Assembly: GCA_021107855.1 (NCBI GenBank)
Contig: JAIORZ010000011.1
Span: 263,686 to 327,685 of the forward strand
Length of the DNA stretch: 64,000 bases
DNA from: an archaeon
Lineage (GTDB): Archaea > Nanobdellota > Nanobdellia > Pacearchaeales > GW2011-AR1
Direction: 5' to 3'
Shown here piece by piece: positions 31,698 to 53,338 of the stretch (position 1 is the first letter of the stretch; each line of letters begins with the position of its first letter). The notes beneath the pieces are model-generated. The model ran no database searches. It was not told the origin of the DNA and saw only the letters and a program-made list of their open reading frames with translations. A program made the translations under genes and the position numbers.

Positions 31698-31768
31698 TTC
31701 GGGATATTAGGAAGCAGTTTTTTGGGTAAGGAAAATGTTTAAAAAGTGATTAGGTGGTTAGTATTTAT

Positions 31769-31840
31769 GCCTCAATAGTATAGTGGTTAGTACACGGCCC
31801 TGTCGCGGCCGAGATCCGGGTTCAATCCCCGGTTGGGGCG
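31769..31840 (+). tRNA. tRNA-Asp (anticodon GUC)
   Basis: 72 nt. Acceptor GCCTCAA pairs with TTGGGGC; anticodon stem CGGCC/GGCCG closes the loop CTGTCGC with anticodon GTC; T arm CCGGG-TTCAATC-CCCGG. CCA is not encoded. A tyrosine recombinase gene starts 89 bp downstream, so the tRNA 3' end is a candidate attachment site. Confidence 0.95.
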
Positions 31841-31929
31841 TTCGGAACAAAAATGGAAATCGATGGGCGTCACGTCGATATACAGCATTTATACAATGGC
31901 TTTTTATTTAATATTCTCTTCTAAAACAA

Positions 31930-34155: not shown

Positions 34156-34188
34156 GAAAATTAATAGATGTTATAATACTTAAATATT

Positions 34189-34221: not shown

Positions 34222-34334
34222 GAAGTTACATTCGGCTTAATGTTTTGATTGAAAGACAGCTTACTAAATAAGAAAGTGAAAATAAAATGGCAATAAAAGA
34301 TACCAAAATTTTGGTTACTAAAGAATGTTAAAAA

Positions 34335-37648: not shown

Positions 37649-38284
37649 TTAAACAACCTTAAAATCCATCCCAATCCACCGCCCATCCAACTCAATCCCA
37701 ACCCACTTCCTTCCAATCTCCTCACAAGCCCTACAAGTCGACCCACTCCCAGCAAAAGGATCTAAAACTAAATCACCCTCAGAAGAACTATGAATAATTA
37801 TCTTCTTCAACAAATCCAACGGCTTCTCATGAGGATGATTCAACTTATTATGATTAATATGTGACGCAGTCTGAACATCCGAAAAATTCTTCAAATTATA
37901 TTTAGGCTTTCCTTTCTCAAGAACCAGTATCAATTCATACTGATGCCGAAATGCCCACCCAAGCCCAAAATTGTGTTTCCTCCAAACTACCAAATGTCTG
38001 ATTTTAAATTTAGTATATCTAGAAATAAATTCCGTCAAAAAAGGATAATGCTTCCAATTGGTAAACAAATAAAGACTCCGATTCAACTTCAAAATCCGAT
38101 ACATCTCAACCAAAGCCAAACAATTAATCAGGGGATTTTCATTATTCTTTATAGTTTTATTATTAAAACCATAAGCTACATTATCTCCGTATGGTGGATC
38201 CGTAACAATCAAATCAACACAGCGCCCTGGCATTCCTCTCATAACTTCAATGCAATCCCCCTGAATTATCTTATTTAATTCCAT
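37649..38284 (-). CDS. orphan DNA methyltransferase, beta-type (N6-adenine or N4-cytosine)
   Basis: 211 aa. Motif IV TDPPYG (about residues 29-34) precedes the SAM motif I DPFAGSGST (about 172-180), the order of beta-class amino-methyltransferases. No target-recognition domain beyond a small insert. A 61-aa RHH-like gene overlaps its start by 14 bp, but no restriction nuclease is adjacent. It may protect the element or regulate it. Target sequence unknown. Confidence 0.88.
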   Translation of the reverse strand: MELNKIIQGDCIEVMRGMPGRCVDLIVTDPPYGDNVAYGFNNKTIKNNENPLINCLALVEMYRILKLNRSLYLFTNWKHYPFLTEFISRYTKFKIRHLVVWRKHNFGLGWAFRHQYELILVLEKGKPKYNLKNFSDVQTASHINHNKLNHPHEKPLDLLKKIIIHSSSEGDLVLDPFAGSGSTCRACEEIGRKWVGIELDGRWIGMDFKVV

Positions 38285-38661: not shown

Positions 38662-38820
38662 ATGAAAACAAAATGTAATCTCTGCGGTATACGAACAAAA
38701 AAAGATTTCTGTGAGATCTGTCTAGCTTTCTTAAAACAAAAGTATCCAAACAAAAAAGACCTCAAGCAAGCATTACAATGGCACATAAACCATACCAAAA
38801 AACTAAACGAAGAAGATTGA
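38662..38820 (+). CDS. 52-aa zinc-ribbon protein at the head of the DNA-transfer operon
   Basis: The product starts MKTKCNLCG and has a second CEIC pair at residues 17-20, so one Zn(Cys)4 site is likely, followed by a basic helix KQKYPNKKDLKQ. Its last 43 bp overlap the VirB2-like ORF in another frame. A small DNA-binding regulator is inferred. A/C-rich codon use matches the next genes. Confidence 0.6.
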   Translation: MKTKCNLCGIRTKKDFCEICLAFLKQKYPNKKDLKQALQWHINHTKKLNEED

Positions 38821-39119
38821 ATCTTTTGCCAGTTGCAATATTCTTATTTCTGACAGTAGCCCAAATAGGATTAGTCGTAGCGGCAACCGATGCCGATTTT
38901 GAAGAGATACTAGCTCCACTAACAGTAATCTACGACCTCATCAAATATGCAGCAACGATAGTCGCAGGACTAGTGATGCTTTTCGCAGGCGTCACCTATA
39001 TTGCAAGTGGTTCAGATCCAGGCAAACGGGAGAAAGCCAAGAACATGGTGATGTACGTCATCGTCGGGCTCATGGTGATATGGGCAGCTCCTTTTGTCGT
39101 CAACCTAATCCTCGGATAG
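38778..39119 (+). CDS. VirB2/TrbC-like pilin of a type IV secretion-type system
   Basis: 113 aa. A basic start (KPYQKTKRRR) and hydrophobic signal end near AA, leaving a mature part with two helices: IYDLIKYAATIVAGLVMLFAGVTYIA and the region after SGSDPGKREKAKNMV (loop), which continues VIVGLMVIWAAPFVVN. The two-helix design with a charged loop GSDPGKREKA is the T4SS-pilin pattern also found in archaeal DNA-import (CedA1/Ted) proteins. It would form the pilus or pore lining. Confidence 0.75.
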   Translation: MAHKPYQKTKRRRLNLLPVAIFLFLTVAQIGLVVAATDADFEEILAPLTVIYDLIKYAATIVAGLVMLFAGVTYIASGSDPGKREKAKNMVMYVIVGLMVIWAAPFVVNLILG

Positions 39120-39130
39120 TTCAAAACAAA

Positions 39131-39508
39131 ATGAGAAAGATATTTGTTTTTTTTATGGCAGTTGCTTTGGCCCTGCCCTTAGCAACTGCCTTTAATTGCA
39201 CTAAGCTCGACGGAGAAGAACATAAAATTTGTGACTATATTGAAGATATGGATTGGACTCAAGATGAAAAAGATGAAGTTATCCAAGATATGGTTGACTC
39301 TGGCGACGCCTCTCTTGATGGAAACTTTGATTCAATACTAGGCAATATTCCAGAAGACACAATCCAATTAAATAAACTCGAAGAAGTAGAACTAAAGATT
39401 AGCGACGAGAATAGAGAGTTTTTAATAGATTTCTCTTCAATCTCGCTTTTCGGATATATTGTTTATTCTTTTCTTAAGAGATACTATCTTCTACTACATC
39501 TATTATGA
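39131..39508 (+). CDS. secreted acidic protein in the DNA-transfer operon
   Basis: 125 aa from the ATG at 39131, which starts a clear signal peptide (KIFVFFMAVALALPLATA). The mature part is acidic with two Cys in FNCTKLDGEEHKICDY and ends with a hydrophobic segment (residues about 100-120). The stop overlaps the next ATG (ATGA). No family recognised; position suggests a component of the transfer channel. Confidence 0.65.
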   Translation: MRKIFVFFMAVALALPLATAFNCTKLDGEEHKICDYIEDMDWTQDEKDEVIQDMVDSGDASLDGNFDSILGNIPEDTIQLNKLEEVELKISDENREFLIDFSSISLFGYIVYSFLKRYYLLLHLL

Positions 39509-40329
39509 GTACCTGCGGAATTACAAATTTAGGGTCTTGCCTTGTAGAAAATTTATTCGAATTTATAATCTACATTCTAAACCTACCAATCAAAGCTCTC
39601 CTAATCCTAATCAACAACTTAATGATAGAGCCAGTCAACATCCAAATCTTCGCCAGCACATGGTCAATAATGATCTACATTCTCTCGTTATTTTACGGTA
39701 TACTTCTCCTAATCACGGGTTTCAGATTCATGCTTTCAGGACATTCCCCAGAACAACGAGAAAAAGCAAAGCGAGAATTAATGAACACAATATTAATGAT
39801 AGTGTTCATCCAAGCGAGTTTCTTCCTATACAAACTAATCTTAGAAATTATATCTTCAATGTCAGCAGTAATTTTCAATTTAATCCAAGATGATTTCTTC
39901 TTAATAACAATAGACAATCTAGGAAATATAGGCCTAGAGCTAGTATTAATCATCCCCTACATCACAGTATTAGTCACAACACTAATTTTTCTAACCTTAA
40001 GATACATCTGCGTCGGAATAGGAGTAATATTTTTCGCAATAGGAATTTTTCTCTACTTTATAGAACCACTAAATCAATACGGGAAATTGATCTTAAATTA
40101 TCTCTTCGTCCTAATGGCACTCCCACTCATCTATTCAATAATTTTCCTAGCCTCTTCAAAATTTCTAGAGCTACCAATTTTTACAAATATGAAAATAATA
40201 GTAATGATTGGAGCATTCGCACTAGTAGATATAACAACAATGTTTCTAGCGCTATTCGTAATAATCAAAGCGGCAAGTAGCCTATCAGGACCCATCACAA
40301 CCATAACAAAAGTTACAGGAGCTCTATAG
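39505..40329 (+). CDS. VirB6/TrbL/CedA-like polytopic membrane protein
   Basis: 274 aa with about six to seven helices. LITGFRMLSGHSPEQREKAKRELMNTI (around residue 85) has the same GxSPEQREKAKR-type loop as the VirB2-like protein's SDPGKREKAK, a feature of T4SS membrane proteins in archaea and Gram-positives. It lies between the pilin and VirB4 genes, as in T4SS operons, and starts within the previous stop codon. Confidence 0.72.
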   Translation: MSTCGITNLGSCLVENLFEFIIYILNLPIKALLILINNLMIEPVNIQIFASTWSIMIYILSLFYGILLLITGFRFMLSGHSPEQREKAKRELMNTILMIVFIQASFFLYKLILEIISSMSAVIFNLIQDDFFLITIDNLGNIGLELVLIIPYITVLVTTLIFLTLRYICVGIGVIFFAIGIFLYFIEPLNQYGKLILNYLFVLMALPLIYSIIFLASSKFLELPIFTNMKIIVMIGAFALVDITTMFLALFVIIKAASSLSGPITTITKVTGAL

Positions 40330-40330
40330 A

Positions 40331-43300
40331 ATGTATGAAATTCCACAGCAACTAGAATACAAAGAAAAAATAGTCTTTGGCCTAACTTTTTCCCAATTAT
40401 TCTACGCCCTAATTTTCTTTCCAATAATTTTCGGTATATTTTTCAAACTCCAAGCAAATCTAACAGTCCGTATTTTTCTCGCATCGATTCCAATGCTTCT
40501 AGCAGTAGGCTTTATGTTTTTTGACCTTTCAGATAATCTAAAAATTTGGTATACCTGGCTTAAAACTAGAAACCTAGATACAAAAGAAAAATTAGAAAAA
40601 GCCTTGGCGCTGGGAGAGGTTAAAAATAATTTGATTTTTGCCAACAATAAAAGAATTGCGGTCATAAAAGTAGAGTCGATAAATTTTTCTATCAAAACTC
40701 AAAAAGAAAAAGAGACCATTGGGTACGCTTTTCAAAAACTCCTTAATTCAATAGATTTCCCAATTCAAATTCTAATGGCAACAGAGACTCTGAATCTAGA
40801 TTCTTATCTGGGCGTTCTGGAGAAAAAGATGATTGACAATAATCATAAAAAAATATTCGATTCATACCAAAACCATATGAAAAATTTAGTTGAAGATAAT
40901 AGTGCCATGAACAGAAATTTCTATGTAGTAATCCCAGAAACAAGCGATATTGGTATCCAAATAAAATTAATTGAAGACAGGCTTCATAGCCTAAACCTGA
41001 AAACCTCGAGGATGAAGAATGATACTTTAGAGAAAATGCATTTAGGGGTCTTTGACAAAAATAGATTTCCTAATTTAATAAAAAATTCTCCAGATTTCTT
41101 AATGGTTAATAAGAAAAAAGCCATGCCTAAGACGATAATAAACGAGGTAGAAGAAATAATTCTCGAAGAAATAATCGAGGAATTAGGAGATTTGAATAGG
41201 GCAATGAATGAATGTCTTCTTGAAGAAATAGATGATCTGACAAATGATTATAATCGTAATGAAAAGTTTCACAAAATAATCTATGCTTATGGCTACCCCA
41301 GATCAGTTGAAAACGGATTCCTTGATAAATTAGTTAGTTGCTCTGGAAATTTTGATTTCTCACTACACATCAATCCTCATCAGATAGAACAAACGTTAAT
41401 TATGTTAAACAGGGAATTGCAAAAACAAAGAGCTGATCTTTATGCTGCAAAATTAAAAAACCAGCTTAGTCCAAGTTTAGAAATAAAATATCAGGACACT
41501 AGGGCAATTCTGGCCAACTTACAAAAAGGAAATGAGAAATTATTTGACGTAAGTCTATACATTAATTGCAGAGCTGACAGCCTAAAAGAATTAAATTTAC
41601 TAACAAGGAAAATAGAATCTGAATTAAATTCTTTATTGATTATTCCAAGAAAACCTATCTTTAGAATGTTAGATGGATTCAAGTCGTGCTTACCTTTAGC
41701 AAAAAACTTTCTAGATGTTAATAGAAATATCACAACTCCAGCACTTTCTGCCTTCTTTCCCTTTACCTCATCTTTTTCGAGATTTGACGAAACCGGAATT
41801 TGGCTTGGTTTGGATAAAAACAACATCCCAATAATAAAGGACATCTTCAATCTTTCAAACCCAAATGGTATAGTCCTCTCCCAATCTGGCGGAGGAAAAT
41901 CGTATTTCTGCAAATTATTGATAACTCGATATTTACTCAACGGCACAAAAGTCATGGTAATCGACCCGCAAGGAGAGTACGGCGCCCTTGTCTCGCATTT
42001 TGAGGGCCAGAGAATCGATCTTTCTAGAGATTCTAAGACAATCATAAACCCGCTAGATTTAATGGGACACGACTATATAGAAAAGCGATTGTCTTTAATG
42101 GATTTAATGAAGGTTATGCTCGGAGATTTAACCGATATCCAAAGAGCTTTCATCGATAAAGCGATAAATCTAACATACAAGAAAAAAGGTATAACAAATA
42201 ACCCAGACAGCTGGAATAATGAGCCTCCAATTCTAGGAGATTTAATGAAAGTTTTTAAGCAAATGGAAACCGAAGCCTCGAAGTTAGAAAAAACCACAAT
42301 CAACAGCTTAGCAAGTCGTCTTGACATGTATGTTTCAGGTGTTTTTGGTTTTATGAATAGAAAAACTAATTTGGATTTTAACAATAATTTAGTTTGTTTC
42401 GACATTGGTAATCTGCCCTCTCAAGTTAAGCCCGCAATAATGTTTCTAGTTTTAGATTATATCTATATGAAGATGAAATCTGATCTCACTAGGAAAATAT
42501 TGTTAATTGATGAGGCTTGGACATTGCTTTCAAAAACTGAGGAGGCCGGTTATATTTTTGAGATTGTAAAAACTTGTAGGAAATTTAATTTAGGACTTCT
42601 TTTGATAAATCAGGAAGTTGAAGGATTGTTAGATTCGAGAGCTGGCAAGTCGGTTTTGGCAAATTCTGCGTATACCATTCTAATGAAACAAAAGCCTGCG
42701 GTAATTGATAGTATTTGTAGAACTTTTCATCTGAGCGAAGGTGAGAGAAGACATCTTTTGACATCAAATATTGGAGAAGGTCTCTTGATGATGGAAGATG
42801 ACCACTCTGAGTTGAAAGTTATTGCTTCGCCTGCAGAGCATAAGTTGATTACTACAAATCCTGATGAGTTGAATGTAATTAAAAAGAAAAAAGAACCACA
42901 GAAAAAAGTTGATATTGGAATCGATCCGAACAAAAGGTTCTTTCATAAAAAGGGTTTGAAGAAAGATGAAATTAAATTCCTTTTAGGTGAGGGCTATCAA
43001 GTTAAAAAATATAAAAGCTTGGTAACTGATAAGATGGGGGATTTTCTTTTGCAGCCAAGACATAATGAGAGTTTGACGCATTTGTTTATGGTTCATAATA
43101 TTTCGGAATTTTTGGAGAAGAATGGAATTGAGACGAAGTTATATACAACTAAAAAACCAGATATTGTTTTTGAGATTGGTGGGAAGAGGTTTGCGATTGA
43201 GATTGAGACTGGGAGTATGCTTAGTAGAAAGAAAGCGCTAATTGAAAGAGTAAAATTTTTGAATAAAAATTATGATAAGTGGTTTTTTGTTGTAACTGAT

Positions 43301-43402
43301 AAGAATAAGGTTCCAAAATATAAAGAACTCGGGGATACGATGAATAGTAGATTTGTAAAACGGCGATTAGACAGGCTCATAAAATCTGTGAAAAAGAGCT
43401 AA
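40331..43402 (+). CDS. PrgI-VirB4 fusion ATPase with C-terminal nuclease-like domain
   Basis: 1023 aa. Residues 1-85 are a PrgI-like two-helix membrane domain. Residues about 110-480 are the CagE/TrbE/VirB4 N-terminal domain. The ATPase core has Walker A SQSGGGKSYF (about 517-526), Walker B ILLIDEAWTLL (about 723) and INQEVEGLL. Residues 870-1023 form an extra domain with PDIVFEIGGKRFAIEIETG (about 943-961), resembling PD-(D/E)XK-type 'PD...EIE' nucleases seen in replication-relaxation proteins. VirB4 powers pilus assembly and DNA transfer. The fused nuclease-like domain is unusual, and its lysine position is Thr. Confidence 0.85.
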   Translation: MYEIPQQLEYKEKIVFGLTFSQLFYALIFFPIIFGIFFKLQANLTVRIFLASIPMLLAVGFMFFDLSDNLKIWYTWLKTRNLDTKEKLEKALALGEVKNNLIFANNKRIAVIKVESINFSIKTQKEKETIGYAFQKLLNSIDFPIQILMATETLNLDSYLGVLEKKMIDNNHKKIFDSYQNHMKNLVEDNSAMNRNFYVVIPETSDIGIQIKLIEDRLHSLNLKTSRMKNDTLEKMHLGVFDKNRFPNLIKNSPDFLMVNKKKAMPKTIINEVEEIILEEIIEELGDLNRAMNECLLEEIDDLTNDYNRNEKFHKIIYAYGYPRSVENGFLDKLVSCSGNFDFSLHINPHQIEQTLIMLNRELQKQRADLYAAKLKNQLSPSLEIKYQDTRAILANLQKGNEKLFDVSLYINCRADSLKELNLLTRKIESELNSLLIIPRKPIFRMLDGFKSCLPLAKNFLDVNRNITTPALSAFFPFTSSFSRFDETGIWLGLDKNNIPIIKDIFNLSNPNGIVLSQSGGGKSYFCKLLITRYLLNGTKVMVIDPQGEYGALVSHFEGQRIDLSRDSKTIINPLDLMGHDYIEKRLSLMDLMKVMLGDLTDIQRAFIDKAINLTYKKKGITNNPDSWNNEPPILGDLMKVFKQMETEASKLEKTTINSLASRLDMYVSGVFGFMNRKTNLDFNNNLVCFDIGNLPSQVKPAIMFLVLDYIYMKMKSDLTRKILLIDEAWTLLSKTEEAGYIFEIVKTCRKFNLGLLLINQEVEGLLDSRAGKSVLANSAYTILMKQKPAVIDSICRTFHLSEGERRHLLTSNIGEGLLMMEDDHSELKVIASPAEHKLITTNPDELNVIKKKKEPQKKVDIGIDPNKRFFHKKGLKKDEIKFLLGEGYQVKKYKSLVTDKMGDFLLQPRHNESLTHLFMVHNISEFLEKNGIETKLYTTKKPDIVFEIGGKRFAIEIETGSMLSRKKALIERVKFLNKNYDKWFFVVTDKNKVPKYKELGDTMNSRFVKRRLDRLIKSVKKS

Positions 43403-43523: not shown

Positions 43524-45881
43524 TCAAAAGAACTTATCCAAAAATTCAAATTCCTTCCCTGAATCTTCATAATTATAGGTATCTTTTGAATTAATTTTCC
43601 ATATATTGGAAAATTCAACTACTATTCCTCCAATAAGAGTTTTGTTTTTTTGTTTTTTAATCCACTCTTGTAATGCTTCCGCTTTCCATTTCGTTTCATT
43701 CTCACTTGCGGTTTTCCCCTTCTTGGTATCAACTATCAAGGTAATTCCATTCTTTAATTTGATAATCCAATCTGGGTAAAATAGTCGTTCCCTATGTTTA
43801 TTATGATCATAGTAAGGTATCGCGAAATAATCACTACCTTCATCTCCATTCTTATGCCACCACTCAACATTATCCTTACCTTCAAGATATTTAATGAATC
43901 TTGTTTCATTTATCTTTCCAAGGTATTCTTTTTGTAAATAAAAGGGCTTCATTGAGCATCTATTTACACCTTTCTTAATTTCCTCGTAATCTTCATTATA
44001 TTCTAAAATCTCATTTGGAATATCCAAGAGTGTAGTTCCTTTGGATCTTGATGCCTTTTGATGAACTTCCTCTTCTCGTATTGGTCTATATTTTAGAAGA
44101 GCATCGCTGATAATTTTAACCAATTCACTATCTAATTTGAGTAAATCCTTAACTATTAACTTGTAATAGTTGTCTCTGTCTTCTTTTGACGCCTTTTTGA
44201 TCCAGACGTTTAATGCAGTTTTTAATTTCCCCCATGATCTTGCAGGTGCAAATCTTCTCTTTTCATCTTCTTGTTTTGCAAGAATATCAAAACATCTCAT
44301 ATTGTATGTCCTAATTAAATCATTCTTTGAAGTTTCTCTGTTTAAATCTGTTCCATGATCAACCAATTCTTGAATAAAATTATCAAAGTTTTCAATTTCT
44401 GCATCAACAATCATATTGTTATCTATATTTAATGAATCAAAAGACAGTCCTTTCTGCTCTAATTTTTTCTTTACTACCGCTGGAGAATCCCCTTTTTCGA
44501 TTTCAAAATGTTTATTCGCAATTTTTTCAAAAATATTTTGGAAGGAATCTCCAAGGTCATTATAATTAGGTCTACTCATGTAAGTGGATTCCAGTTTTAT
44601 TGGAGTAATTCCCTTTTTTCTCTTACTTGTATAGATAAATGGCTTATTTGTACCTAATTTGCCCCAGTTTTCTCTGACCTGATTTCTTTCATAATTGGTA
44701 TAAAGGTATGCTTTGTTTAGTTCTTGCTCTGAATAAAATCTTGCCTCAGGCATTCTTAAAACTCTTCCAACAGTTTGGGTATGAAATACTGGATTTCTTA
44801 TTTCTCTAAACATAACTAAGATGGAGGCTCTAGGGCAATCCCATCCTGTTGCGGCCGCTTGTTTAAATATTAAGAAATCAACTTCTGAATCATTCTCTTC
44901 AATATCTTCTAAATTCTCTTTTGGTCCCGCTAACCAAATAGCAACTTTGTGACCAGGAACCCCCTTCTCTCTTAAGTAGTTCTTCACTAATTCCATTTTT
45001 GTTTGATCTAGGGTTTCCTTTGTGGAAATATCATCATTAGGCAATTGTATTAATGCAAGAGGATTTATGTCTAGTTCAAAATCTTTATATTTTTTCAAAA
45101 GCTCTTCTCTTTTATTGTATGCTAAATCCAAGAGCAATATATCCTGATCAATTTCTTTTTTCTTTACATTCTCTAAATCCTCTTTGGTTTGAGTTATTAT
45201 TTTTTCTTTGATTAATTCTGCTTCAACCACATCCTCTCTTGTTACATTAACGAATCCTTTTGTTTTCATTTGTATTTCTAATGCATTTGGAATTGCTTTC
45301 GGAGTGGCAGTTACTTTAAGAATAATTTTTGGATCAATTAAGTTAATTAACTCATCTGCAAGGTTTGTATCAGTGTCTCTGTGGGCCTCATCAACAATTA
45401 ATATTATTTCTCTTCCATCTTTTTGGGTTTTTTTGATTAATTCATCAAATTGCCCGTCATCTCCTTCGGTATATTCTGTAGGGTTTCTTAGTTTTCTGCC
45501 TTCTTTTGTGGATGATTTCAGTTTCTGCCAATTTATAAAAAAAATATTATTTTTTTCGAGTTTCTTTTTATTCGCCAAATCTATTAAATCCAACAAATTA
45601 AGCTCTCCTGCGCCACCATAGTAATTTAATAATTTATTTTTGCTTTGTAAATAAGAAGGTTCATTAAAACTAAACCACAAAAAACATTTATCTGCATCAA
45701 ATTGAGGATCTCCAGTAAGGTCTCTTAAAAATTGGGCCATCATAATTGTTTTCCCTGATCCGGTGGGAGATTTTAAGATTAACTCTGTTTTTCTGTTGTT
45801 GGATTTCCAAAGCGTAAGAAATTGATTTCTTAATTCTGCAATTGCATTCTCTTGAAATGGTTTGAGTATTATCTTGCTCAT
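43524..45881 (-). CDS. res: type III restriction enzyme, Res subunit
   Basis: 785 aa. Walker A SPTGSGKT (38-45), DEAH in IVDEAHRDTDTN (about 165), KVTATP, and lobe-2 motif AAATGWDCPRA...VGRVLRMPEA. The C-terminal nuclease shows PDWIIKL (about 702) and the D-x-K of IVDTKKGKT (about 715). It translocates and cuts DNA with the Mod subunit when target sites are unmethylated. It overlaps mod by 4 bp. It ends the eight-gene minus-strand run, and a convergent gap of 121 bp separates it from the VirB4 gene. Confidence 0.92.
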   Translation of the reverse strand: MSKIILKPFQENAIAELRNQFLTLWKSNNRKTELILKSPTGSGKTIMMAQFLRDLTGDPQFDADKCFLWFSFNEPSYLQSKNKLLNYYGGAGELNLLDLIDLANKKKLEKNNIFFINWQKLKSSTKEGRKLRNPTEYTEGDDGQFDELIKKTQKDGREIILIVDEAHRDTDTNLADELINLIDPKIILKVTATPKAIPNALEIQMKTKGFVNVTREDVVEAELIKEKIITQTKEDLENVKKKEIDQDILLLDLAYNKREELLKKYKDFELDINPLALIQLPNDDISTKETLDQTKMELVKNYLREKGVPGHKVAIWLAGPKENLEDIEENDSEVDFLIFKQAAATGWDCPRASILVMFREIRNPVFHTQTVGRVLRMPEARFYSEQELNKAYLYTNYERNQVRENWGKLGTNKPFIYTSKRKKGITPIKLESTYMSRPNYNDLGDSFQNIFEKIANKHFEIEKGDSPAVVKKKLEQKGLSFDSLNIDNNMIVDAEIENFDNFIQELVDHGTDLNRETSKNDLIRTYNMRCFDILAKQEDEKRRFAPARSWGKLKTALNVWIKKASKEDRDNYYKLIVKDLLKLDSELVKIISDALLKYRPIREEEVHQKASRSKGTTLLDIPNEILEYNEDYEEIKKGVNRCSMKPFYLQKEYLGKINETRFIKYLEGKDNVEWWHKNGDEGSDYFAIPYYDHNKHRERLFYPDWIIKLKNGITLIVDTKKGKTASENETKWKAEALQEWIKKQKNKTLIGGIVVEFSNIWKINSKDTYNYEDSGKEFEFLDKFF

Positions 45882-47569
45882 AAATTTGCCACCTCTTTAT
45901 AAACATCAATTAGGGGTTCAGGGATATCTTTAACTTTAATTTTTTTGTATTCTGCAAATTCATTTACATATTCATTCTTTCCCCAACTAAAAATATAGAG
46001 GTTTATTTTTTTACCCATCTTGTCTAATTTCTCAACTAACTTTTGTAGCTTACCCTTATCCTCTTTAAAATATATTGCGGTAACCTCTTTCTCATTTGAA
46101 AAAATCTGCCACCAATCATCCCTTTCAACTTCTTCAAAAGTTTCCTCTCTAACTGCAATCATCTCTCCGGCCCTACGGGTTAATTCAAGTTTATCTTGAT
46201 CTGTTGCATTATCAAGGTTTTCTGTTTCTACAAAATTGGTTTTATAATATCTAAGATTCCCTCCAAACCCCTCAATCTTATTTTTATTATTGTCAGAGTA
46301 GCCTTTTATGACCTTTTTCAAACGGGGATAGCAAATATTCTCTGCAATTTTATTACCCTGATTATTATTGTCTTCGTTGTTGGTACATAGAATAAATTTT
46401 CTATTTCCACCATCTTCTTTGTTGAGGTCCATTACGGCATGCCCGGTTGTCCCACTTCCTGCAAAAAAGTCCAGGACAGTAATATTATCCTTGCCATTCC
46501 CACTAGATATATCAAGAAGTTTTTTTATTAATTTCGTAGGTTTTGGAAACTTAAAAACATTGTCCCCTAAAATCGAGTTAATTTCTTTAGTCCCATCTTG
46601 GGTATATACGTCATCAATTATAGAAAATGGCTTTGTTCTTCTGGTTACTCCAGTCTCATCTTTTAAATACTGTTTGAATCTTATGGACCACTTAGCAGAT
46701 TTATTTTTTTTAAAGTCTAATTCTCCCTTTTCGAGCGCATTCTCTACCCTTTCCTTGCCCCATACCCACTGTCTTTTTGGCATGATTTCTGAGCCGTCAG
46801 GTGCTTGAACTGGATAAACTAGATTTGGACGGGGGTCCATAGACTTGCCTGCTTCTAGTGGCTGTGTCCTATAGCCACCTCTTAGCTCATAATTTTCATC
46901 TTTATTCTTAAAATATTTATCAATAAATTCAGGGCTTGTTTTAATGCTAAATTCTTGGAGGGACTTTTTGTCTTTTGCATATACAAAAATGTATTCATGT
47001 ATTGCGGCGTGATATTTTTCTTTTGCTCCCTGATATCTTTTTTTCCAAACAATTGAATCTACAAAATTATCTTCTCCGAAGATTTCATCACATAAAAGCT
47101 TTAATTGAGCAAATTCATGATCATCTATACTAATAAAAATTACTCCTGTTTTTCGAAGTAATCTTTTCCCAAGTTTCAATCTTTTTTCTATAAAATTTAA
47201 CCATTTACTGTGTCTCCAACGATCTTCCGCGTCAATCCATATATCATTATATTTCCACTCCTTAGAATTTCCAGTATTATATGGGGGATCAATATAAATC
47301 ACGTCAATTTTTTCTTTATGAGTATAACTTAAGGCAGAAAGAGAGTGGTAATTATCTCCCTCAATTATGAAGTTATTGGGTTCATCCACTTCTCCTTTTA
47401 TTTTTCTTTTCTTATCCTCACTAAAAATAGGTAAATTTTTTCTACAATCCAAAACAACTTTTTCTGGCTCCTTTTCGGCATCCCAAACCAGGCCATACTT
47501 TTTCCTCTGTTTTAATTTTTCTATTTCTCTTATTAGATCTTCTTTAGATGCTTTGTCATAATCTTTCAT
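45878..47569 (-). CDS. mod: type III modification methyltransferase, Mod subunit
   Basis: 563 aa. Motif IV IDPPYNTG (about 93-100) precedes SAM motif I DFFAGSGTTGHAVMDLN (about 368-384); the first 30 residues are a Lys-rich helix. The N6-adenine beta class and length fit type III Mod. The central region (about 190-330) would carry target recognition. It overlaps the EVE gene upstream and res downstream by 4 bp each. Confidence 0.93.
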   Translation of the reverse strand: MKDYDKASKEDLIREIEKLKQRKKYGLVWDAEKEPEKVVLDCRKNLPIFSEDKKRKIKGEVDEPNNFIIEGDNYHSLSALSYTHKEKIDVIYIDPPYNTGNSKEWKYNDIWIDAEDRWRHSKWLNFIEKRLKLGKRLLRKTGVIFISIDDHEFAQLKLLCDEIFGEDNFVDSIVWKKRYQGAKEKYHAAIHEYIFVYAKDKKSLQEFSIKTSPEFIDKYFKNKDENYELRGGYRTQPLEAGKSMDPRPNLVYPVQAPDGSEIMPKRQWVWGKERVENALEKGELDFKKNKSAKWSIRFKQYLKDETGVTRRTKPFSIIDDVYTQDGTKEINSILGDNVFKFPKPTKLIKKLLDISSGNGKDNITVLDFFAGSGTTGHAVMDLNKEDGGNRKFILCTNNEDNNNQGNKIAENICYPRLKKVIKGYSDNNKNKIEGFGGNLRYYKTNFVETENLDNATDQDKLELTRRAGEMIAVREETFEEVERDDWWQIFSNEKEVTAIYFKEDKGKLQKLVEKLDKMGKKINLYIFSWGKNEYVNEFAEYKKIKVKDIPEPLIDVYKEVANL

Positions 47570-47973
47570 TTTTTCTCCGAGCGTTTTTTTAATAAATTAT
47601 AATCTTTTTTAGTTATTTCTACACCAGATTTTCCCATTAATACGCCCCCCCAACTTTTTTTATCTTTAAATATTGAAATTCTGTCTACCAAATCCCTCGT
47701 AAACTCAAGAGGTTTATCTGGGAGATTGCTTTCGCTTAGTTTTACTTTAAATCCGTAATATCTCCCTTCAAATTTTAAATTAGAATCGATATTAATATCT
47801 GTAATTTTAAAAAATCCGACTATTTTCTTTGGAATAAGGTATAGTGCCACCAAATCCCCTTCCCTTATTTTTTTTGCGATTTTTGTAGATTTATCACTAA
47901 ATCCATAAATTTCATGTTTGATTATAGTTGGGAATGTGTCTTTACTCGCAATTAGAATCCAAAATTTATTCAT
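47566..47973 (-). CDS. EVE-domain protein (PUA-like modified-base reader)
   Basis: 135 aa. WILIASKDTF at the start, a YGF motif, REGDLVALYLIP and IVGFFKITDI match the EVE/PUA-like fold that flips out and binds modified bases such as 5-methylcytosine. EVE genes commonly sit beside restriction systems. It is translated between DUF2779 and Mod with 4-bp overlaps, so it probably works with this RM operon. The base it reads is unknown. Confidence 0.72.
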   Translation of the reverse strand: MNKFWILIASKDTFPTIIKHEIYGFSDKSTKIAKKIREGDLVALYLIPKKIVGFFKITDINIDSNLKFEGRYYGFKVKLSESNLPDKPLEFTRDLVDRISIFKDKKSWGGVLMGKSGVEITKKDYNLLKKRSEKK

Positions 47974-49442
47974 TTTATTTTATTTTTTAGCCCTTTAATT
48001 ATTTCAACTTCTGCGAGTGTATCAAGCTCACAATATCTTTCCAGAGCTCTCCTCGCTTTTAACCTTTCTGCTTCCTCAACATCACCGTAAGTCATTCTTT
48101 CATATTTCAAACTAGCCAAGGCGCCATCCTTAATATCCATCTTGTCATAACTTAGATCACTCAAAACGGGTAAAACATATTTTATCGAAGTAGACCCTTC
48201 CTGCTTAGGATCATAATAACTGAAGTCCTTGAATACATCCCAAAGGTCTTTTATCCTTGTAAAAATATTCTCATCATACCACTCTCTAAACTCTGGCAAG
48301 GCCCCAGAGCATTCATTCATAACACCCTTCTCAAATCCCTGATTATAAACCAAAATACTTCCCTTTTCTCCAAGGTTATCTTTTAGAGATTGCATAAATT
48401 TAGGCCGTGGGTCACTCATCCCCTCAGCCAAAAACGAAACATGCCTCAACTCTCCACTTTCCTCCTCCTGAACATGCAACGAAAACTGAAACGGAATTCT
48501 TTGATAGGGTCTCATTCCATCAAATTTCGGAATCGCCGGATTAATCGTTTCAAAATCTAAATAATAAACAGGATACTTCAAACTCTCAAGAAAATTCTTA
48601 ACCTGCAACTTATTAATATGCTTTCCGCCATCAAACGCCAATCGACGCTGTATTTGTTGTTTATCATTCAATTTCACATTCTCAGGAACATCATTCAACT
48701 TAACAATTCCAGAATCATATAACTCAAAAGTCTTCTTCTTCAACATCCTATAAAAATCAAACACACTGTCTTCAGGCACATCTTTCCAACATTCATCCTT
48801 TATAGGACAATCATAAGGATTTGAACAATTAAACCCAATTTTACAATTAGGCTCCTCCCTGGAATTAATAATTTTAGACATTTCCTCAATCCTAAATTCA
48901 AGCCCTTCAGAAAATTCCTCGACCTTTTCACTAATTTCCGTCTGCACAAACAACTCCGAAGGCTCAATCTCCCCATCACGAACATACTGATTATTAATAT
49001 GCATCAAAAAACATTTCCGAATCTTCAGCCCAGCTTTCTCATAGACATACTTCTGAAAAGCGACGTCATGCAGATTCGTCTCCTTGACCCTAGTCGCACT
49101 CTTAACCTCAACGATATCCCACTCATCCTCACCAACCGGCACCAAAACATCCGCCCTAGAATACAAACTATCAATCATAAAAGCTGGCTCAAATAAAGGA
49201 ATTCTTTTACTAATTAATTTTTTAGTATTTCTTAAATTTTCCATAAAATTATCGTCAGGGATATCCTGCCCCTCGGGAAAAACTTTCGTCGCCAACTCTC
49301 CAAGAATATGCCCATCAGAAAATTTCTTTAATGTAATCTCGTCATGCTCTGGAAGTCTTTGTTTGTCATTTTTTGTTACCCATAGAAGTTTTGGGCATTG
49401 TAGACCTAGAAGGTAGTTGGATTTTGTTAGGAGTTTTGCCAT
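47970..49442 (-). CDS. DUF2779 protein with Cas4-like and RNase H-like domains
   Basis: 490 aa from the ATG at 49442. An N-terminal PD-(D/E)XK domain has DVLVPVGEDEWDIVEVKSATRVKE, and cysteines at CPKLLW (residue about 17) plus CKIGFNCSNPYDCPIKDECW (C at about 203-221) probably hold an Fe-S cluster, as in Cas4. The C-terminal DUF2779 domain has YYLDFETINPAIPKF and a YCELDTLAEVE segment, i.e. an RNase H-like exonuclease active site. No cas genes or CRISPR array are present, so a CRISPR role is unlikely. It heads the EVE-Mod-Res series. Confidence 0.75.
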   Translation of the reverse strand: MAKLLTKSNYLLGLQCPKLLWVTKNDKQRLPEHDEITLKKFSDGHILGELATKVFPEGQDIPDDNFMENLRNTKKLISKRIPLFEPAFMIDSLYSRADVLVPVGEDEWDIVEVKSATRVKETNLHDVAFQKYVYEKAGLKIRKCFLMHINNQYVRDGEIEPSELFVQTEISEKVEEFSEGLEFRIEEMSKIINSREEPNCKIGFNCSNPYDCPIKDECWKDVPEDSVFDFYRMLKKKTFELYDSGIVKLNDVPENVKLNDKQQIQRRLAFDGGKHINKLQVKNFLESLKYPVYYLDFETINPAIPKFDGMRPYQRIPFQFSLHVQEEESGELRHVSFLAEGMSDPRPKFMQSLKDNLGEKGSILVYNQGFEKGVMNECSGALPEFREWYDENIFTRIKDLWDVFKDFSYYDPKQEGSTSIKYVLPVLSDLSYDKMDIKDGALASLKYERMTYGDVEEAERLKARRALERYCELDTLAEVEIIKGLKNKIK

Positions 49443-49477
49443 AATTATCGCAAGGAGCAAGAGCTTATAAAATTACT

Positions 49478-49888
49478 CTAACTTTCTCCAAAAATCCTAT
49501 TCAGTTTATCTTCAAGCTCTCTATCCCCATCAAACTCAAAAACCTCATCCGCAATTCCTTTCAATAAAAATCCCCTACAATCTTCTTTCGAAGCAACAAT
49601 CAACTTCTTCCCAAGTCCCTTCATATAACCACTCTCAATCAAGAGCCCCTCACCCTTCTCCGCACTCTCCAATACAACCAAGATAACATCGGATTTCTTC
49701 ATCTCAATCCTAGCCCTCTCCATAACTTCCTCAGGTTTCATTTCCCCAGGCTTCCAGTCCTGTACATCTCTAATAAAAATAAAGCTCTTATGCCCAAGTT
49801 TTTCAATTATTTTAGATATCTTCTCAAGCCTCAACCTAAGTTTCTCAACATTCGTCCCGCTCAACTTATACGCTACATAAATTCTCAT
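49478..49888 (-). CDS. nucleoside 2-deoxyribosyltransferase-like protein
   Basis: 136 aa. The Rossmann-like fold opens with RIYVAYKLSG; SDVILVVLESAEKGEGLLIESGYMKGLGKKLIV carries the Glu expected as nucleophile (ESGY). The family cleaves or transfers deoxyribose on nucleosides or nucleotides (NDT, DNPH1, DUF4406). It overlaps the B12-radical SAM gene by 4 bp. It may generate or recycle a modified base. Substrate unknown. Confidence 0.65.
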   Translation of the reverse strand: MRIYVAYKLSGTNVEKLRLRLEKISKIIEKLGHKSFIFIRDVQDWKPGEMKPEEVMERARIEMKKSDVILVVLESAEKGEGLLIESGYMKGLGKKLIVASKEDCRGFLLKGIADEVFEFDGDRELEDKLNRIFGES

Positions 49889-51132
49889 CCTTTTCTCCTA
49901 CTAAATCTACGGTAAGCACTAATTATATATTCATCTAATTTTTCTGGCGACACACCATTCAAAGACGAATTATTCATAACATGATATTTCACATAGGGAG
50001 CATCTATTTTCGACTGAGCATAATCGTCTAACTCTTCTCTAGAATATCCAGCTTCTTCAAGATTTTTATACAACCGAGTCCCAGGGAAAGCTCGAACAAC
50101 CATAAATCTCGCATCGTCTGGATTAAGATCCATAGCAAAATCAATAGTATCCTCAATCTCTTTTTCAGTTTCATTAGGATGTCCAACGGTGAAAAATGCT
50201 TTGGTCTCAACCCCCAATTTACGACACGAATCGAAAATAGATTTAGTTTTCTTAATATCAGAACTTTTTCCAATGTACTCCAAAACACTAGGTGTTGCGG
50301 ACTCAACCCCAATAGCGATTCTATAACATCCAGAATCTTTCATTCTGCTCAAGAGATTTTCATCCAAATTTTCAATCCTACAAAGTGCCCTCCAAGAAGG
50401 ATTCGCATCACTCTGACTCAATGCTTCCGTAAAAGAGATTACTCTATCTTTACTGAAATTAAATAAATCGTCAGTAAAATGGATACTTTTAACTCCCTTG
50501 GTAGATAAATTTTCAATTTCCCCAACAACATTCTCAATTGACCTTGCACGCATTTTTCTTCCGCCAATTGTAGGGACAGAACAATAAACACAATTAAAAG
50601 AGCACCCTCTAGAGGAATTTATCGACGCTTCTCTCTCCCCGTTGTCTGAAGAGTAGGGATCATTTACAAAAAACTTACGATTAACATATGGTAATGAATC
50701 AAGGTTTTGCACAAGTCCCGCATTTATGATCCCCATAGGTCTCTCTCTTAAAATCTTTGGAAATATTTTATCAGCCTCTCCTTTAACAACTGTATAACTC
50801 CCCTGCAATTCCTCTCCCCTAAGTGTGGCATGAGGTCCCCCAACCAATTTATAATTCCCAGAAGAATTTTCCAAAATATCCAAGGCAAGCCGATGATTAG
50901 TAGAAAAAATATTTATCCCAACGATATCCGGATTCAAATTGTCAATTCTTTTTACAACTTCACTAGGACTCAACTTCTCAGCCTCCGCATCAACAATTTC
51001 AACATCATACCCTTCTCTCGAAGCAACCGTCGCTAAATATCCAAGACCAAGAGGAGCTGTAGTAAAATAATTTGGCTTATTTTTTTCCGAATACTCTTGC
51101 ATTGGGCTATTAATTAAAACGAGATCTTTCAT
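49885..51132 (-). CDS. B12-binding domain radical SAM enzyme
   Basis: 415 aa. The N-terminal cobalamin-type domain has PLGLGYLATVASREGYDVEIVDAE and DIVGINIFS...LVGGPHATLRGEE. The radical SAM barrel has the CxxxCxxC of SSRGCSFNCVYCSVPTIGG (Cys at about 178, 182, 185), then a FTVGHPNET loop typical of BchE-like members. Such enzymes methylate, cyclise or rearrange unreactive carbons. It lies within the four-gene overlap series, so it likely acts on the same pathway as the TyrRS-like protein. Confidence 0.87.
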   Translation of the reverse strand: MKDLVLINSPMQEYSEKNKPNYFTTAPLGLGYLATVASREGYDVEIVDAEAEKLSPSEVVKRIDNLNPDIVGINIFSTNHRLALDILENSSGNYKLVGGPHATLRGEELQGSYTVVKGEADKIFPKILRERPMGIINAGLVQNLDSLPYVNRKFFVNDPYSSDNGEREASINSSRGCSFNCVYCSVPTIGGRKMRARSIENVVGEIENLSTKGVKSIHFTDDLFNFSKDRVISFTEALSQSDANPSWRALCRIENLDENLLSRMKDSGCYRIAIGVESATPSVLEYIGKSSDIKKTKSIFDSCRKLGVETKAFFTVGHPNETEKEIEDTIDFAMDLNPDDARFMVVRAFPGTRLYKNLEEAGYSREELDDYAQSKIDAPYVKYHVMNNSSLNGVSPEKLDEYIISAYRRFSRRKG

Positions 51133-52274
51133 CTTCCAATACTCCCCAGATTTAAAACTACATGTTCAATGGCTCTCTTCGGCTTTTTGTCTGCTGTCAA
51201 TAAACCCATATTTCTTAACTGGGTAATATAAGTCGAAACAGTACTCAATTTTAAACTAGATTTTTTAGAAATATCCAAGATTGAATTTGCTCCATCACAA
51301 TTCTTCAAAATAATTAGCTTAATATCATTCAATGGCTTAATCATCTTCCCGAATTCCTCAGGACCATCGATAAACCGACTTTTCATTTCGTCAGCAACGT
51401 TTATTTTACTAACAATTTTTTTTAGTTTATCAAAATATGAATAAAGACTTTGTGACACTACTTCCACAAACTCAAAATAATCCAAATCAGAAATCATCGT
51501 CTCGGCCTTACTTCTCCCCACCTTTCTATTTTCTAAAACGACCTTATCTAGAATAGAAAACAAGACATCAAATAATTCAGAAATTTCCTTTTCGTTAGGC
51601 TTGGTATTATTATAATGAGATTCTACTATTCTCTGAATACTATCTTTAGACATCTCCGAAGAAGGAATAACACGATCTTTCTTATGAATTATCACAGGAA
51701 CTCCAGTAACGTAAATACTCTTCGGGGGACTATATCTAGATTTCAATTTTAAAATATGATCCATATCTCCTTTAAAAATTTTGAATCTTTCAGAAGTTAA
51801 ATAATGAGTCGGCTGTCCACCACACACTTCTGGAAAAAGTTCTGGAAGAAATGTCGCCGCTAAATAATCCATGATAATATAATTTATTCGAGATAAACTA
51901 ATATCTCCGAATGGGATATACCTAAGAGAAAACCCTTTTCTTATTTTCTCAATATCAATAATCGACAAAGAATTATGATACAAATTCGTTATCTCTCTAT
52001 TCCTAAAGGCTCTTGACCAAAGCTCGGATAGGTATATCAATTTATAATTCAAACCAAGATACTTCATCAAAGCTTCAATCATCCGAACATTAGATTTTAA
52101 TTTTTCTTGCCTAGACTTCTCGCTAGAGGAATTAAGTATACGACTTTCAAGAACAAAGAGATCCCACACGCAGAGATAAACTTTTTGTGGCTTCTGTTTC
52201 TTTAAATAAAAAATATGATTAAAGTTTGTATATGCATTTGTCGTTGGGCTAATATTTGTATATATTATTTTCAT
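51129..52274 (-). CDS. TyrRS/TrpRS-like (class I aminoacyl-tRNA synthetase-like) protein with C-terminal winged helix
   Basis: 381 aa. The order of features follows the TyrRS catalytic domain: strand IIYTNIS, PTTNAYTNFNHIFYL at the HIGH position (only the second His, H20, remains), strand KVYLCVWDLFVLES, helix NVRMIEALMKYLGLNYKLIYLSELW, IMDYLAATFLPELFPEVCGGQ (139-154 area; GGQ as in TyrRS) and PSSEMSKD (204-211) at the KMSKS position. The anticodon-binding domain is replaced by a helical region and a winged HTH (about 310-370). It may adenylate or transfer an amino acid in a small-molecule or nucleotide pathway. Assignment is by eye and needs a structural check. Confidence 0.5.
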   Translation of the reverse strand: MKIIYTNISPTTNAYTNFNHIFYLKKQKPQKVYLCVWDLFVLESRILNSSSEKSRQEKLKSNVRMIEALMKYLGLNYKLIYLSELWSRAFRNREITNLYHNSLSIIDIEKIRKGFSLRYIPFGDISLSRINYIIMDYLAATFLPELFPEVCGGQPTHYLTSERFKIFKGDMDHILKLKSRYSPPKSIYVTGVPVIIHKKDRVIPSSEMSKDSIQRIVESHYNNTKPNEKEISELFDVLFSILDKVVLENRKVGRSKAETMISDLDYFEFVEVVSQSLYSYFDKLKKIVSKINVADEMKSRFIDGPEEFGKMIKPLNDIKLIILKNCDGANSILDISKKSSLKLSTVSTYITQLRNMGLLTADKKPKRAIEHVVLNLGSIGR

Positions 52275-52915
52275 TGCAAAACCTCCACAACTTCCGCTAA
52301 AGATTTCGCAAGAAAATTTTCCATTCTAACACCTTCCGCTCCCTTTACCTCCACCTCATCGTGAGATACAAATAAACTAGTTTCAGGGATACTTCCAGCC
52401 TTCTTCATCGCAATATTATAAATTTCAGGATGAGGTTTTCTAACTCCCACGTCGCCAGATAAAGTAAATGTTTTAAAAAATCCAAGCATATCATATTCAA
52501 CTAATTCTGTGTAGAGGGAATCATGAGGAATATTAGAGATTATATGTAAGTTTCTTTTCTTAGCCAACACAGGAAGCATTTCAGAAGTCGTCTCCATAGG
52601 ACAATAATCATGATCATTTAGTTTGTATATGTCAACTAATCTAGGAATGAGTTTTTTATCTAAACCAAGTATATCAGTAATATCTCTAATAATTTTATTC
52701 ATTGACCATTCGGAGTTATTTCTTTTTCTTGCTTGTAGATATGTTCCGATAGTTTGGTCATGAGCTTTTTTAAGATTATTTTTGTCTATGGTATACCCTT
52801 CAGATTCAACATAGTCAATAGTAAGTCCATGTGCTCTAGAGAGAGTTTCATTATTAAATTTATGATAAAATATCAATTCCCCATAATCTAGGAAGAGGTC
52901 CTTATTTTTTGCCAT
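52271..52915 (-). CDS. HAD-superfamily hydrolase
   Basis: 214 aa from the ATG at 52915 (a TTG at 52921 is in frame). Motif I LFLDYGELI has the nucleophile Asp with Gly at the +2 position, as in the DFGG/DYGG subgroup; motif II is IISNIPHD, motif III Lys is in GVRKPHPEIY, and motif IV is the HDEVEVKGAEGVRM region. The cap between motifs I and II is helical. Likely a phosphatase on a small metabolite. It is the first gene of the four-gene series and overlaps the next by 4 bp. Confidence 0.8.
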   Translation of the reverse strand: MAKNKDLFLDYGELIFYHKFNNETLSRAHGLTIDYVESEGYTIDKNNLKKAHDQTIGTYLQARKRNNSEWSMNKIIRDITDILGLDKKLIPRLVDIYKLNDHDYCPMETTSEMLPVLAKKRNLHIISNIPHDSLYTELVEYDMLGFFKTFTLSGDVGVRKPHPEIYNIAMKKAGSIPETSLFVSHDEVEVKGAEGVRMENFLAKSLAEVVEVLQ

Positions 52916-53071
52916 TGTCAATTTATCAAGAACTCTTTTCCCCTTGGGATAAAGTTATATGTTTTCTTTCTTTTTAAGGATTTGTATATTTTTATATATT
53001 TATGAACTTAGCATATATATAATTGTGAATCTTAATCCTAGTAAGAAAAGGGGAGGTGATAAAAATCGCAA

Positions 53072-53338
53072 ATGAAAAAAACCACACTCACCCCCAGAAC
53101 AAAAATAAATAGTGAAGGAAAAATTTTCTACAGTGAAAGTGCACAGGCATGGAATATTTTAAAATTTAAAAAGGAATTATTTTCTGAGTTTCCGCAGTTG
53201 AAGGAGAAACGATCCAAATTTTCTTATAAATTAACTTATTATAGAAATTCGGAAGAGCTGGAAAAAGAAATAGGGGTATTGGCGAAAAAGAGGAATCAGG
53301 TAATGCCGGTGTTGTTGTTTTTGTATAAGGAAGATTAA
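53072..53338 (+). CDS. small basic protein, 88 aa
   Basis: No family recognised. Lys/Glu-rich, soluble. A strong Shine-Dalgarno GGGAGGTGAT at 53051-53060 lies 11 nt before the ATG, and A/T-rich TATA sequence (CATATATATAA near 53017) precedes it. It is transcribed away from the HAD operon, sharing the 150-bp gap 52922-53071. Confidence 0.5.
   Translation: MKKTTLTPRTKINSEGKIFYSESAQAWNILKFKKELFSEFPQLKEKRSKFSYKLTYYRNSEELEKEIGVLAKKRNQVMPVLLFLYKED

What the first reader, a model, noticed from the sequence alone, without database searches (positions are those of the whole stretch)
43524..49442. Type III RM operon extended by EVE reader and DUF2779 nuclease
DUF2779 (Cas4-like plus RNase H-like), EVE, Mod and Res are co-oriented with 4-bp overlaps throughout. 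EVE domains read modified bases and DUF2779 has two nuclease-like folds, so the operon could combine methylation-dependent and methylation-blocked DNA cutting.
Basis: partly seen in the sequence, partly recalled or inferred. Interest (0 to 1): 0.7.

Follow-up and report, generated by a model that had tools for sequence, protein, structure and literature searches.

The report
Restriction operon led by dual nuclease
In a tiny, uncultured archaeon, a DNA-cutting defence operon carried by a mobile element starts with a gene for a two-domain DNA-trimming enzyme, and in related archaea that same enzyme gene sits in front of many unrelated restriction systems, suggesting a general-purpose helper that destroys cut viral DNA.

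Summary
In detail: DUF2779, EVE, Mod and Res lie on the minus strand (49442-43524) and every junction is an ATGA overlap. The reading changes. (1) The operon is cargo of an integrative element. The element begins at tRNA-Asp (att core CGGTTGGGGCGT, 31830-31841) and ends at a direct repeat about 2.8 kb beyond the window. It also carries an integrase, Shedu-like and Gabija-like genes, and VirB2/VirB6/VirB4. A second, inverted element lies next to it, with its own DUF2779 copy in front of a type I RM system. (2) DUF2779 is not tied to type III. In the window's archaeal family it precedes type I, II, III and IV restriction genes: 12 DNA methyltransferases lie within 5 kb downstream on the same strand against 0.22 expected, and none upstream. 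The link holds in genomes without this VirB4 and is absent around bacterial chromosomal DUF2779. (3) DUF2779 is a Cas4-like PD-(D/E)XK nuclease joined to a PolB-type 3'-5' exonuclease, with catalytic residues intact. (4) EVE is incidental: 2 of 369 related genomes have it. Best explanation: a restriction system plus a general end-degrading nuclease, with EVE as a private accessory. One sentence in a 2017 paper already noted solo-Cas4 beside RM in DPANN. No activity was tested.

The parts
47970..49442 (-). DUF2779 nuclease: Cas4/EXO5-like PD-(D/E)XK domain with four-Cys cluster (about 1-220) plus PolB-type DEDDy 3'-5' exonuclease domain (289-490); first gene of the operon
   Evidence: PF11074 6e-39; AF2 pLDDT 95.4; Foldseek to Cas4 8d3l E 3e-5; VIA Z 15-16 to PolB exonuclease domains; invariant C16, D98, E112, K114, D296, E371
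47566..47973 (-). EVE-domain protein (UPF0310/PH1033-like), predicted modified-base reader
   Evidence: 2p5d 3.8e-10, 1wmm 1e-7; PRK00809 6e-17; PF01878 only 0.0054, below cut-off
45878..47569 (-). Mod: type III DNA adenine methyltransferase (DPPY at 94, FFAGSGT at 368)
   Evidence: PADLOC MTase_III 1.4e-104; solved Mod 6k0w 3e-52, Mbo45V 1e-50, EcoP15I Mod 2e-36; motifs
43524..45881 (-). Res: SF2 helicase-nuclease (GSGKT, DEAH, TATP, QTVGRVLR; PD...DTK near the C-terminus)
   Evidence: ResIII 3e-19; REase_III 6e-17; motifs
49464..49471 (-). TATA-like box TTTATAAG, 22-29 nt before the DUF2779 ATG; also before the second copy and in G005, G008 and G009 copies
   Evidence: upstream sequences compared
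31830..31841 (+). attL core CGGTTGGGGCGT = last 12 nt of tRNA-Asp; direct copies at genome C1:330480 and C1:357313
   Evidence: 0.001 expected by chance in 101 kb
31768..31841 (+). tRNA-Asp (GTC), insertion site of the element
   Evidence: ARAGORN, Rfam
31930..33114 (+). tyrosine integrase of the element
   Evidence: PF00589 1e-10; 65% identical copy in the neighbouring element
38778..39119 (+). VirB2-type pilin
   Evidence: T4SS_pilin 2e-13, TrbC 9e-9
39505..40329 (+). VirB6-like membrane protein with a weak pilin-like match
   Evidence: weak T4SS_pilin 2e-5; 93% identical copy in the neighbouring element
40331..43402 (+). VirB4-type ATPase with PrgI N-terminus; convergent with Res
   Evidence: TraG P-loop 1e-26, PrgI 4e-7; homologues beside RM genes in related genomes
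37649..38284 (-). small N6/N4 DNA methyltransferase, part of the element backbone
   Evidence: PF01555 3e-33; present in most related elements
49478..52921 (-). HAD - HTH protein - radical SAM - deoxyribosyltransferase-like operon directly upstream of DUF2779, ATGA overlaps throughout; also a module in a G008 element

Best explanation
This is a type III restriction-modification system (Mod, Res) carried as cargo by an integrative element of a Pacearchaeota-like archaeon. It is preceded by a general nuclease, DUF2779, that in this lineage is placed in front of restriction systems of every type. Most likely mechanism: Mod methylates its target in host DNA; Res translocates on and cuts unmethylated incoming DNA; DUF2779 then degrades the resulting ends from both directions, 5'-3' with its Cas4/EXO5-like domain and 3'-5' with its PolB-type exonuclease domain. 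It would thus stand in for the RecBCD-type clean-up used by many bacteria and stop repair of cut DNA. EVE is a private accessory that probably binds a modified base, on the element's own methylated DNA or on modified invader DNA. Shown here: operon structure, domain content, intact catalytic residues, recurrence with many RM types, cargo status. Inferred: all biochemical activities, the division of labour, the role of EVE.
For: Operon with ATGA overlaps and a promoter-like box before DUF2779. In family f1, 12 DNA MTases lie within 5 kb downstream on the same strand (0.22 expected), 3 downstream on the opposite strand, 0 upstream. In genomes without this VirB4, 6 genes at 5 of 14 loci against 0.10 expected, P about 1e-7 by loci. 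Partners differ in type: HsdR/S/M, NgoPII + C5, AspBHI-like + C5, SNF2-Mod-Res, AIPR, GmrSD. Two sister DUF2779 copies in this genome lead a type III and a type I system. IMG/VR contigs repeat DUF2779-SNF2-Mod and DUF2779 with GmrSD or HsdR. Structure and conserved residues. Cargo status: att repeats, integrase, second element.
Against: No activity, expression or defence data. About half of DUF2779 loci have no MTase within 8 kb. Bacterial chromosomal DUF2779 genes show no RM neighbours, so the family's basic job is not RM-specific. Two DPANN copies sit behind uvrB with degenerate exonuclease motifs. DUF2779 has its own promoter-like box, so co-transcription with an RM operon need not mean joint function. 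Association does not prove function.
Confidence: 0.5

Rival explanations
1. One reading: EVE and DUF2779 add a methylation-dependent cutting arm (EVE reads a modified base and recruits DUF2779), so that modified and unmodified invader DNA are both cut.
For: Both genes are translationally coupled to Mod. EVE-type proteins in archaea are reported next to RM systems and as targeting modules of modification-dependent nucleases (PMC7641849). DUF2779 has two nuclease domains.
Against: Only two of 369 genomes, this one and G030, have a detectable EVE of this kind, while DUF2779 is found in 58. So almost all DUF2779 loci lack it, and G030 has this EVE without a DUF2779 match. They are separate proteins.
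Confidence: 0.15
2. DUF2779 is a passenger: an element or host repair nuclease that simply lies next to the slot where RM cassettes are inserted, without acting with them.
For: No RM link in bacterial chromosomes. Own promoter-like box. Third-codon composition of DUF2779 differs from EVE/Mod/Res. It is present at 7 of the related VirB4 elements examined, not all; one G008 element has a different PD-(D/E)XK nuclease nearby.
Against: The one-sided, mostly same-strand pattern (12 against 0 upstream in f1) and its occurrence in genomes without VirB4. Upstream genes are mostly not shared between loci, so there is no single fixed landing site. Coupled overlaps occur in three loci.
Confidence: 0.25
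3. DUF2779 serves DNA transfer: it trims DNA moved by the element's VirB2/VirB6/VirB4 apparatus, and RM is just the neighbouring cargo.
For: DUF2779 lies within about 10 kb of VirB4 in G000 (twice), G008, G009, G066, G273 and G264. Rad50 and HerA-like genes accompany the Ted DNA-import system (PMC9905601).
Against: DUF2779-RM pairs occur in genomes with no VirB4 homologue found (G013, G148, G153, G163, G183), and several VirB4 elements lack DUF2779.
Confidence: 0.1

Closest known systems
Type III restriction-modification (EcoP15I, PstII, Mbo45V)
   Same: Mod with DPPY before FxGxG and strong matches to solved Mod subunits; Res with SF2 helicase motifs and PD...DxK near the C-terminus; mod-res overlap
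   Different: Preceded by EVE and DUF2779 in one operon; carried by a DPANN integrative element
solo-Cas4 next to RM genes in DPANN archaea (Hudaiberdiev et al. 2017, PMC5704561)
   Same: A Cas4-like nuclease beside RM genes in small archaeal genomes; one sentence in that paper already infers a defence role from this
   Different: Here the protein is DUF2779 with an added 3'-5' exonuclease domain; its lead position, enrichment, range of RM types and mobile-element setting are measured. Whether their examples include DUF2779 proteins was not checked
Standalone EVE proteins beside type I RM in archaea (Bell et al. 2020, PMC7641849)
   Same: Standalone EVE in an archaeal RM operon
   Different: Here the system is type III; that paper's text does not mention type III
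Ced/Ted archaeal DNA-import systems (PMC9905601)
   Same: VirB2-, VirB6- and VirB4-like genes; no relaxase recognised among the genes scanned
   Different: Here on an integrative element with integrase and att repeats, in DPANN, with defence cargo
COG2251 / TM0106-type RecB-RNase H fusions and human EXO5
   Same: PD-(D/E)XK nuclease joined to an RNase H-like exonuclease (COG2251), or the Cas4/EXO5 fold with Fe-S cysteines
   Different: PF11074 family, no helicase domain, RM context

Membership tests
Type III restriction-modification system | Mod: N6-adenine MTase with DPPY before FxGxG and type III similarity | tested here: met
   DPPY at 94, FFAGSGT at 368; PADLOC MTase_III 1e-104; 6k0w, 7dsu, 4zcf
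Type III restriction-modification system | Res: SF2 helicase plus C-terminal PD-(D/E)XK nuclease, adjacent to Mod | tested here: met
   GSGKT, DEAH, TATP, QTVGRVLR and PD...DTK; ResIII; 4-bp overlap with mod
Type III restriction-modification system | Sequence-specific hemimethylation and cleavage between inversely oriented sites | not testable with these tools
   needs methylome or enzyme assays
EVE domain family | Homology to EVE/UPF0310 proteins of known structure | tested here: met
   2p5d 3.8e-10, 1wmm 1e-7 over nearly the full length
EVE domain family | Score above the curated Pfam cut-off for PF01878 | tested here: not met
   17.2 against 23 bits: a divergent member at best; NCBIfam PRK00809 also below its cut-off
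EVE domain family | Binding of a modified base | not testable with these tools
   needs binding assays
Cas4 family nuclease | PD-(D/E)XK catalytic residues and four-Cys Fe-S cluster | tested here: met
   D98, E112, K114 and C16 invariant in 54 members; C206, C212 and C218 present in the window protein but lost in some members; Foldseek to Cas4 E 3e-5
Cas4 family nuclease | Association with Cas1/Cas2 | not tested
   no cas genes were noticed in the listed neighbourhoods, but no dedicated search was made
DEDD 3'-5' exonuclease (DnaQ/PolB type) | Fold and DEDD metal ligands | tested here: met
   VIA Z 15.6 to PolB of Pyrobaculum over 164 residues at 2.6 A; D296, E298, D474 with Y470; the Exo II ligand appears to be Glu371 instead of Asp
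Integrative conjugative element | Integrase and direct att repeats at a tRNA gene | tested here: met
   four att copies delimit three elements in G008
Integrative conjugative element | Complete transfer machinery including relaxase and coupling protein | tested here: inconclusive
   VirB2/VirB6/VirB4 present; no relaxase among scanned genes, but not all genes were scanned, and archaeal conjugative elements are reported to lack recognisable ones (PMC9905601)

The most novel reading that the evidence does not exclude
In Nanoarchaeota-type archaea a family of tRNA-Asp integrative elements, with a VirB2/VirB6/VirB4 (Ced/Ted-like) apparatus and no recognised relaxase, keeps an exchangeable slot for restriction systems of any type. 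A Cas4-exonuclease fusion (DUF2779) acts in it as a universal finisher that degrades whatever the resident restriction enzyme cuts, so DUF2779 plus restriction enzyme is a general two-step defence design not yet described.
Probability: 0.35. Interest if true: 0.75.

Novelty: new variant of a known kind. Interest (0 to 1): 0.58.

Why it matters
Restriction enzymes cut DNA but do not destroy it; bacteria often finish the job with RecBCD or AddAB. What finishes the job in minimal DPANN archaea is, as far as I know, an open question. A single nuclease placed in front of RM operons of four types would be a direct, testable candidate, would give DUF2779 (mentioned in only 6 papers of the searched library, none linking it to RM in what was read) a function, and would mark a readable signature for finding new restriction systems. 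The carrying elements would add a family of mobile, defence-loaded DNA-exchange elements to a group of symbionts whose gene exchange is poorly understood.

Tried and rejected
(a) Idea that the element ends between DUF2779 and EVE because third-codon composition changes there: dropped, since the distal att repeat lies 17 kb further on. (b) Search for att repeats inside the window alone found none; the repeat lies outside. (c) 62-kb single element with two inverted arms: replaced by two adjacent elements once a third att copy at C1:330480 was found. (d) General RM link of the DUF2779 family: rejected for bacterial chromosomes; my home-made HMMs missed some HsdR proteins, so the Pfam scans were added. 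(e) EVE-type III Mod as a recurring pair: not found in 369 relatives; nearest Mod relatives have no EVE beside them. (f) PADLOC tally of neighbours was dominated by redundant MTase models and not used for counts. (g) phmmer of Res against PDB gave nothing at E 0.01.
Full report
What is in the window. The window lies at C1:263686-327685 of a 936-kb, 14-contig genome. Named relatives found with DUF2779 are mostly 'Candidatus Pacearchaeota' and Nanoarchaeota at the top of the list, so the host is most likely a DPANN archaeon of that group. Mod and Res carry the expected type III motifs and matches. EVE is divergent: below Pfam's cut-off, but clearly related to UPF0310 proteins 2p5d and 1wmm.

DUF2779 as a protein. 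An AlphaFold2 model from 54 homologues has mean pLDDT 95.4. Its N-terminal part matches Cas4 (8d3l, E 3e-5), human EXO5 and AdnAB. Residues 289-490 match family-B polymerase 3'-5' exonuclease domains (Z 14-16). C16, D98, E112, K114, Q130, D296 and E371 are invariant in 54 members; E298, D399, Y470 and D474 nearly so. Catalytic competence of both domains is thus likely, not shown. A published fold classification predicted 3'-5' exonuclease activity for DUF2779 and noted a DUF83 (Cas4-like) domain in it (PMC3985635).

DUF2779 goes with restriction systems of all types in this lineage. The genome holds a second DUF2779 gene, 84% identical over 1.48 kb including 35 bp upstream. It lies 29 kb away and is followed by HsdR, HsdS and HsdM. 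The two are sisters in the tree yet head a type III and a type I system. I fetched 62 DUF2779 neighbourhoods from 54 related genomes and located DNA methyltransferases of three Pfam families in those genomes. In the window's family, within 5 kb, there are 12 MTases downstream on the same strand (0.22 expected), 3 downstream on the opposite strand (0.22) and none upstream (0.42). Pfam scans of neighbours give C5, N6_N4, N6 MTases and ResIII as leading families downstream. Upstream neighbours, mostly in other families of the class, are also enriched in RM genes, but less. Partners include NgoPII endonuclease with a C5 MTase, an AspBHI-like endonuclease with a C5 MTase and a PLD-helicase system, SNF2-Mod-Res, AIPR and GmrSD. 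In genomes without a VirB4 homologue, 6 same-strand MTases at 5 of 14 loci stand against 0.10 expected. In 73 loci from the genome-contig collection, mostly bacterial, RM neighbours are near absent. Among 13 IMG/VR loci, six have RM, GmrSD or HsdR genes beside DUF2779, one of them DUF2779-SNF2-Mod as in G183; two of the six lie on one contig.

EVE. Only this genome and G030 among 369 have a detectable copy. In G030 it overlaps the start of a different N6-type methyltransferase gene. Bell et al. describe standalone EVE beside archaeal type I RM (PMC7641849). So EVE is a rare add-on to RM operons; the four-gene combination was seen once.

The operon is cargo. The last 12 nt of tRNA-Asp (31830-31841) recur in direct orientation at C1:330480 and C1:357313. 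By composition 0.001 such matches are expected in 101 kb, and in 1.25 Mb of fetched sequence the 12-mer occurs only at a handful of places, most of them tRNA-Asp genes or element ends. This delimits element A (window 31842 to about 66806) and element B beyond it. A: integrase, Shedu-like SduA_C protein, UvrD + OLD (Gabija-like), small MTase, VirB2, VirB6-like, VirB4, then Res-Mod-EVE-DUF2779, the HAD/HTH/radical-SAM/deoxyribosyltransferase operon, and surface-protein genes. B repeats the backbone in inverted order with DUF2779 and the type I system in the same slot. G008 has tRNA-Asp plus three further att copies bounding three tandem elements, each with type I RM 3' of VirB4. One has DUF2779 and one a different Cas4-like PD-(D/E)XK nuclease just before its RM genes. 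G009, G066 and G273 show DUF2779, RM and VirB4 in the same arrangement. VirB2/VirB6/VirB4 without a recognised relaxase resembles the Ced/Ted DNA-import systems (PMC9905601).

How it most likely works. Shown: structure of the operon and element, recurrence, conserved active sites. From established family knowledge: Mod methylates, Res cuts unmethylated DNA, Cas4 and PolB exonuclease domains degrade DNA from the 5' and 3' end. Inferred: DUF2779 finishes off DNA cut by whichever restriction enzyme it is paired with, and EVE senses a modified base.

Known and new. A 2017 study already said in one sentence that solo-Cas4 in several DPANN genomes lies next to RM genes (PMC5704561). A search for DUF2779 found six papers, none of which links it to RM in the passages read or the abstracts. 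The measured, type-independent, one-sided association, the DUF2779 identity, and the element family with its att core were not found in the literature available here. That library is limited to open-licence papers, so absence is weak evidence.

Limits. Genomes are fragmented MAGs and many DUF2779 genes sit at contig ends. Expected counts assume uniform MTase density within a genome, so clustering of defence genes in islands makes the P values too small, although the upstream side of the same loci serves as an internal control. ORF calling was mechanical.

Noticed in passing
G000:C1:295527-357324 (window 31842-64000 and beyond): Two adjacent integrative elements at tRNA-Asp in opposite orientation share a 12-bp att core in direct orientation; how one integrase family yields both orientations is unexplained.
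   Followed up: partly
window 33163-37608: The same element carries a Shedu-like SduA_C protein and an OLD + UvrD pair like Gabija, so three candidate defence systems share one element.
   Followed up: partly
window 38778-43402: VirB2, VirB6-like and VirB4 genes without a recognised relaxase, resembling Ced/Ted DNA import, on an integrative element in a DPANN archaeon.
   Followed up: partly
L070 3783-9831, L093 2652-7673, L094 8679-13587: Related multi-gene system behind DUF2779: DUF1232 protein, PLD-helicase and a large ATPase-like protein in all three loci, with a C5 MTase in two and an AspBHI-like endonuclease in one.
   Followed up: no
L102, L103 (G006:C39, G013:C1): DUF2779 copies directly after uvrB look degenerate in the exonuclease motifs (E298 replaced and YxxxD gone in L102), a possible separate repair role.
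   Followed up: no
L077, L099, L067, gene after or near DUF2779: A 185-187 aa family beginning with 'YKNFWSLN.DEAV.TGIL' recurs beside DUF2779 in three genera; the one member scanned had no Pfam match.
   Followed up: no
DUF2779 3' ends in L068, L074, L084, L101: Several contigs end at or just after the 3' end of DUF2779, which may reflect strain-level exchange of the RM cassette behind it or repeated copies.
   Followed up: no
L190:13393-14565 (G008:C6): A 390-aa PD-(D/E)XK/Cas4-like nuclease sits just before the type I RM genes in a third G008 element, roughly where DUF2779 lies in others.
   Followed up: partly
window 53072-53338 and L033 10763-11044: An 86-114 aa family without a Pfam match marks the distal part of many of these elements.
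   Followed up: no
L036 (G022:C13) 1655-2302 and 4699-5115: Another type III locus has a small Cas4-like nuclease gene and an uncharacterised 138-aa gene between or beside Mod and Res, possibly a parallel to EVE and DUF2779 here.
   Followed up: no
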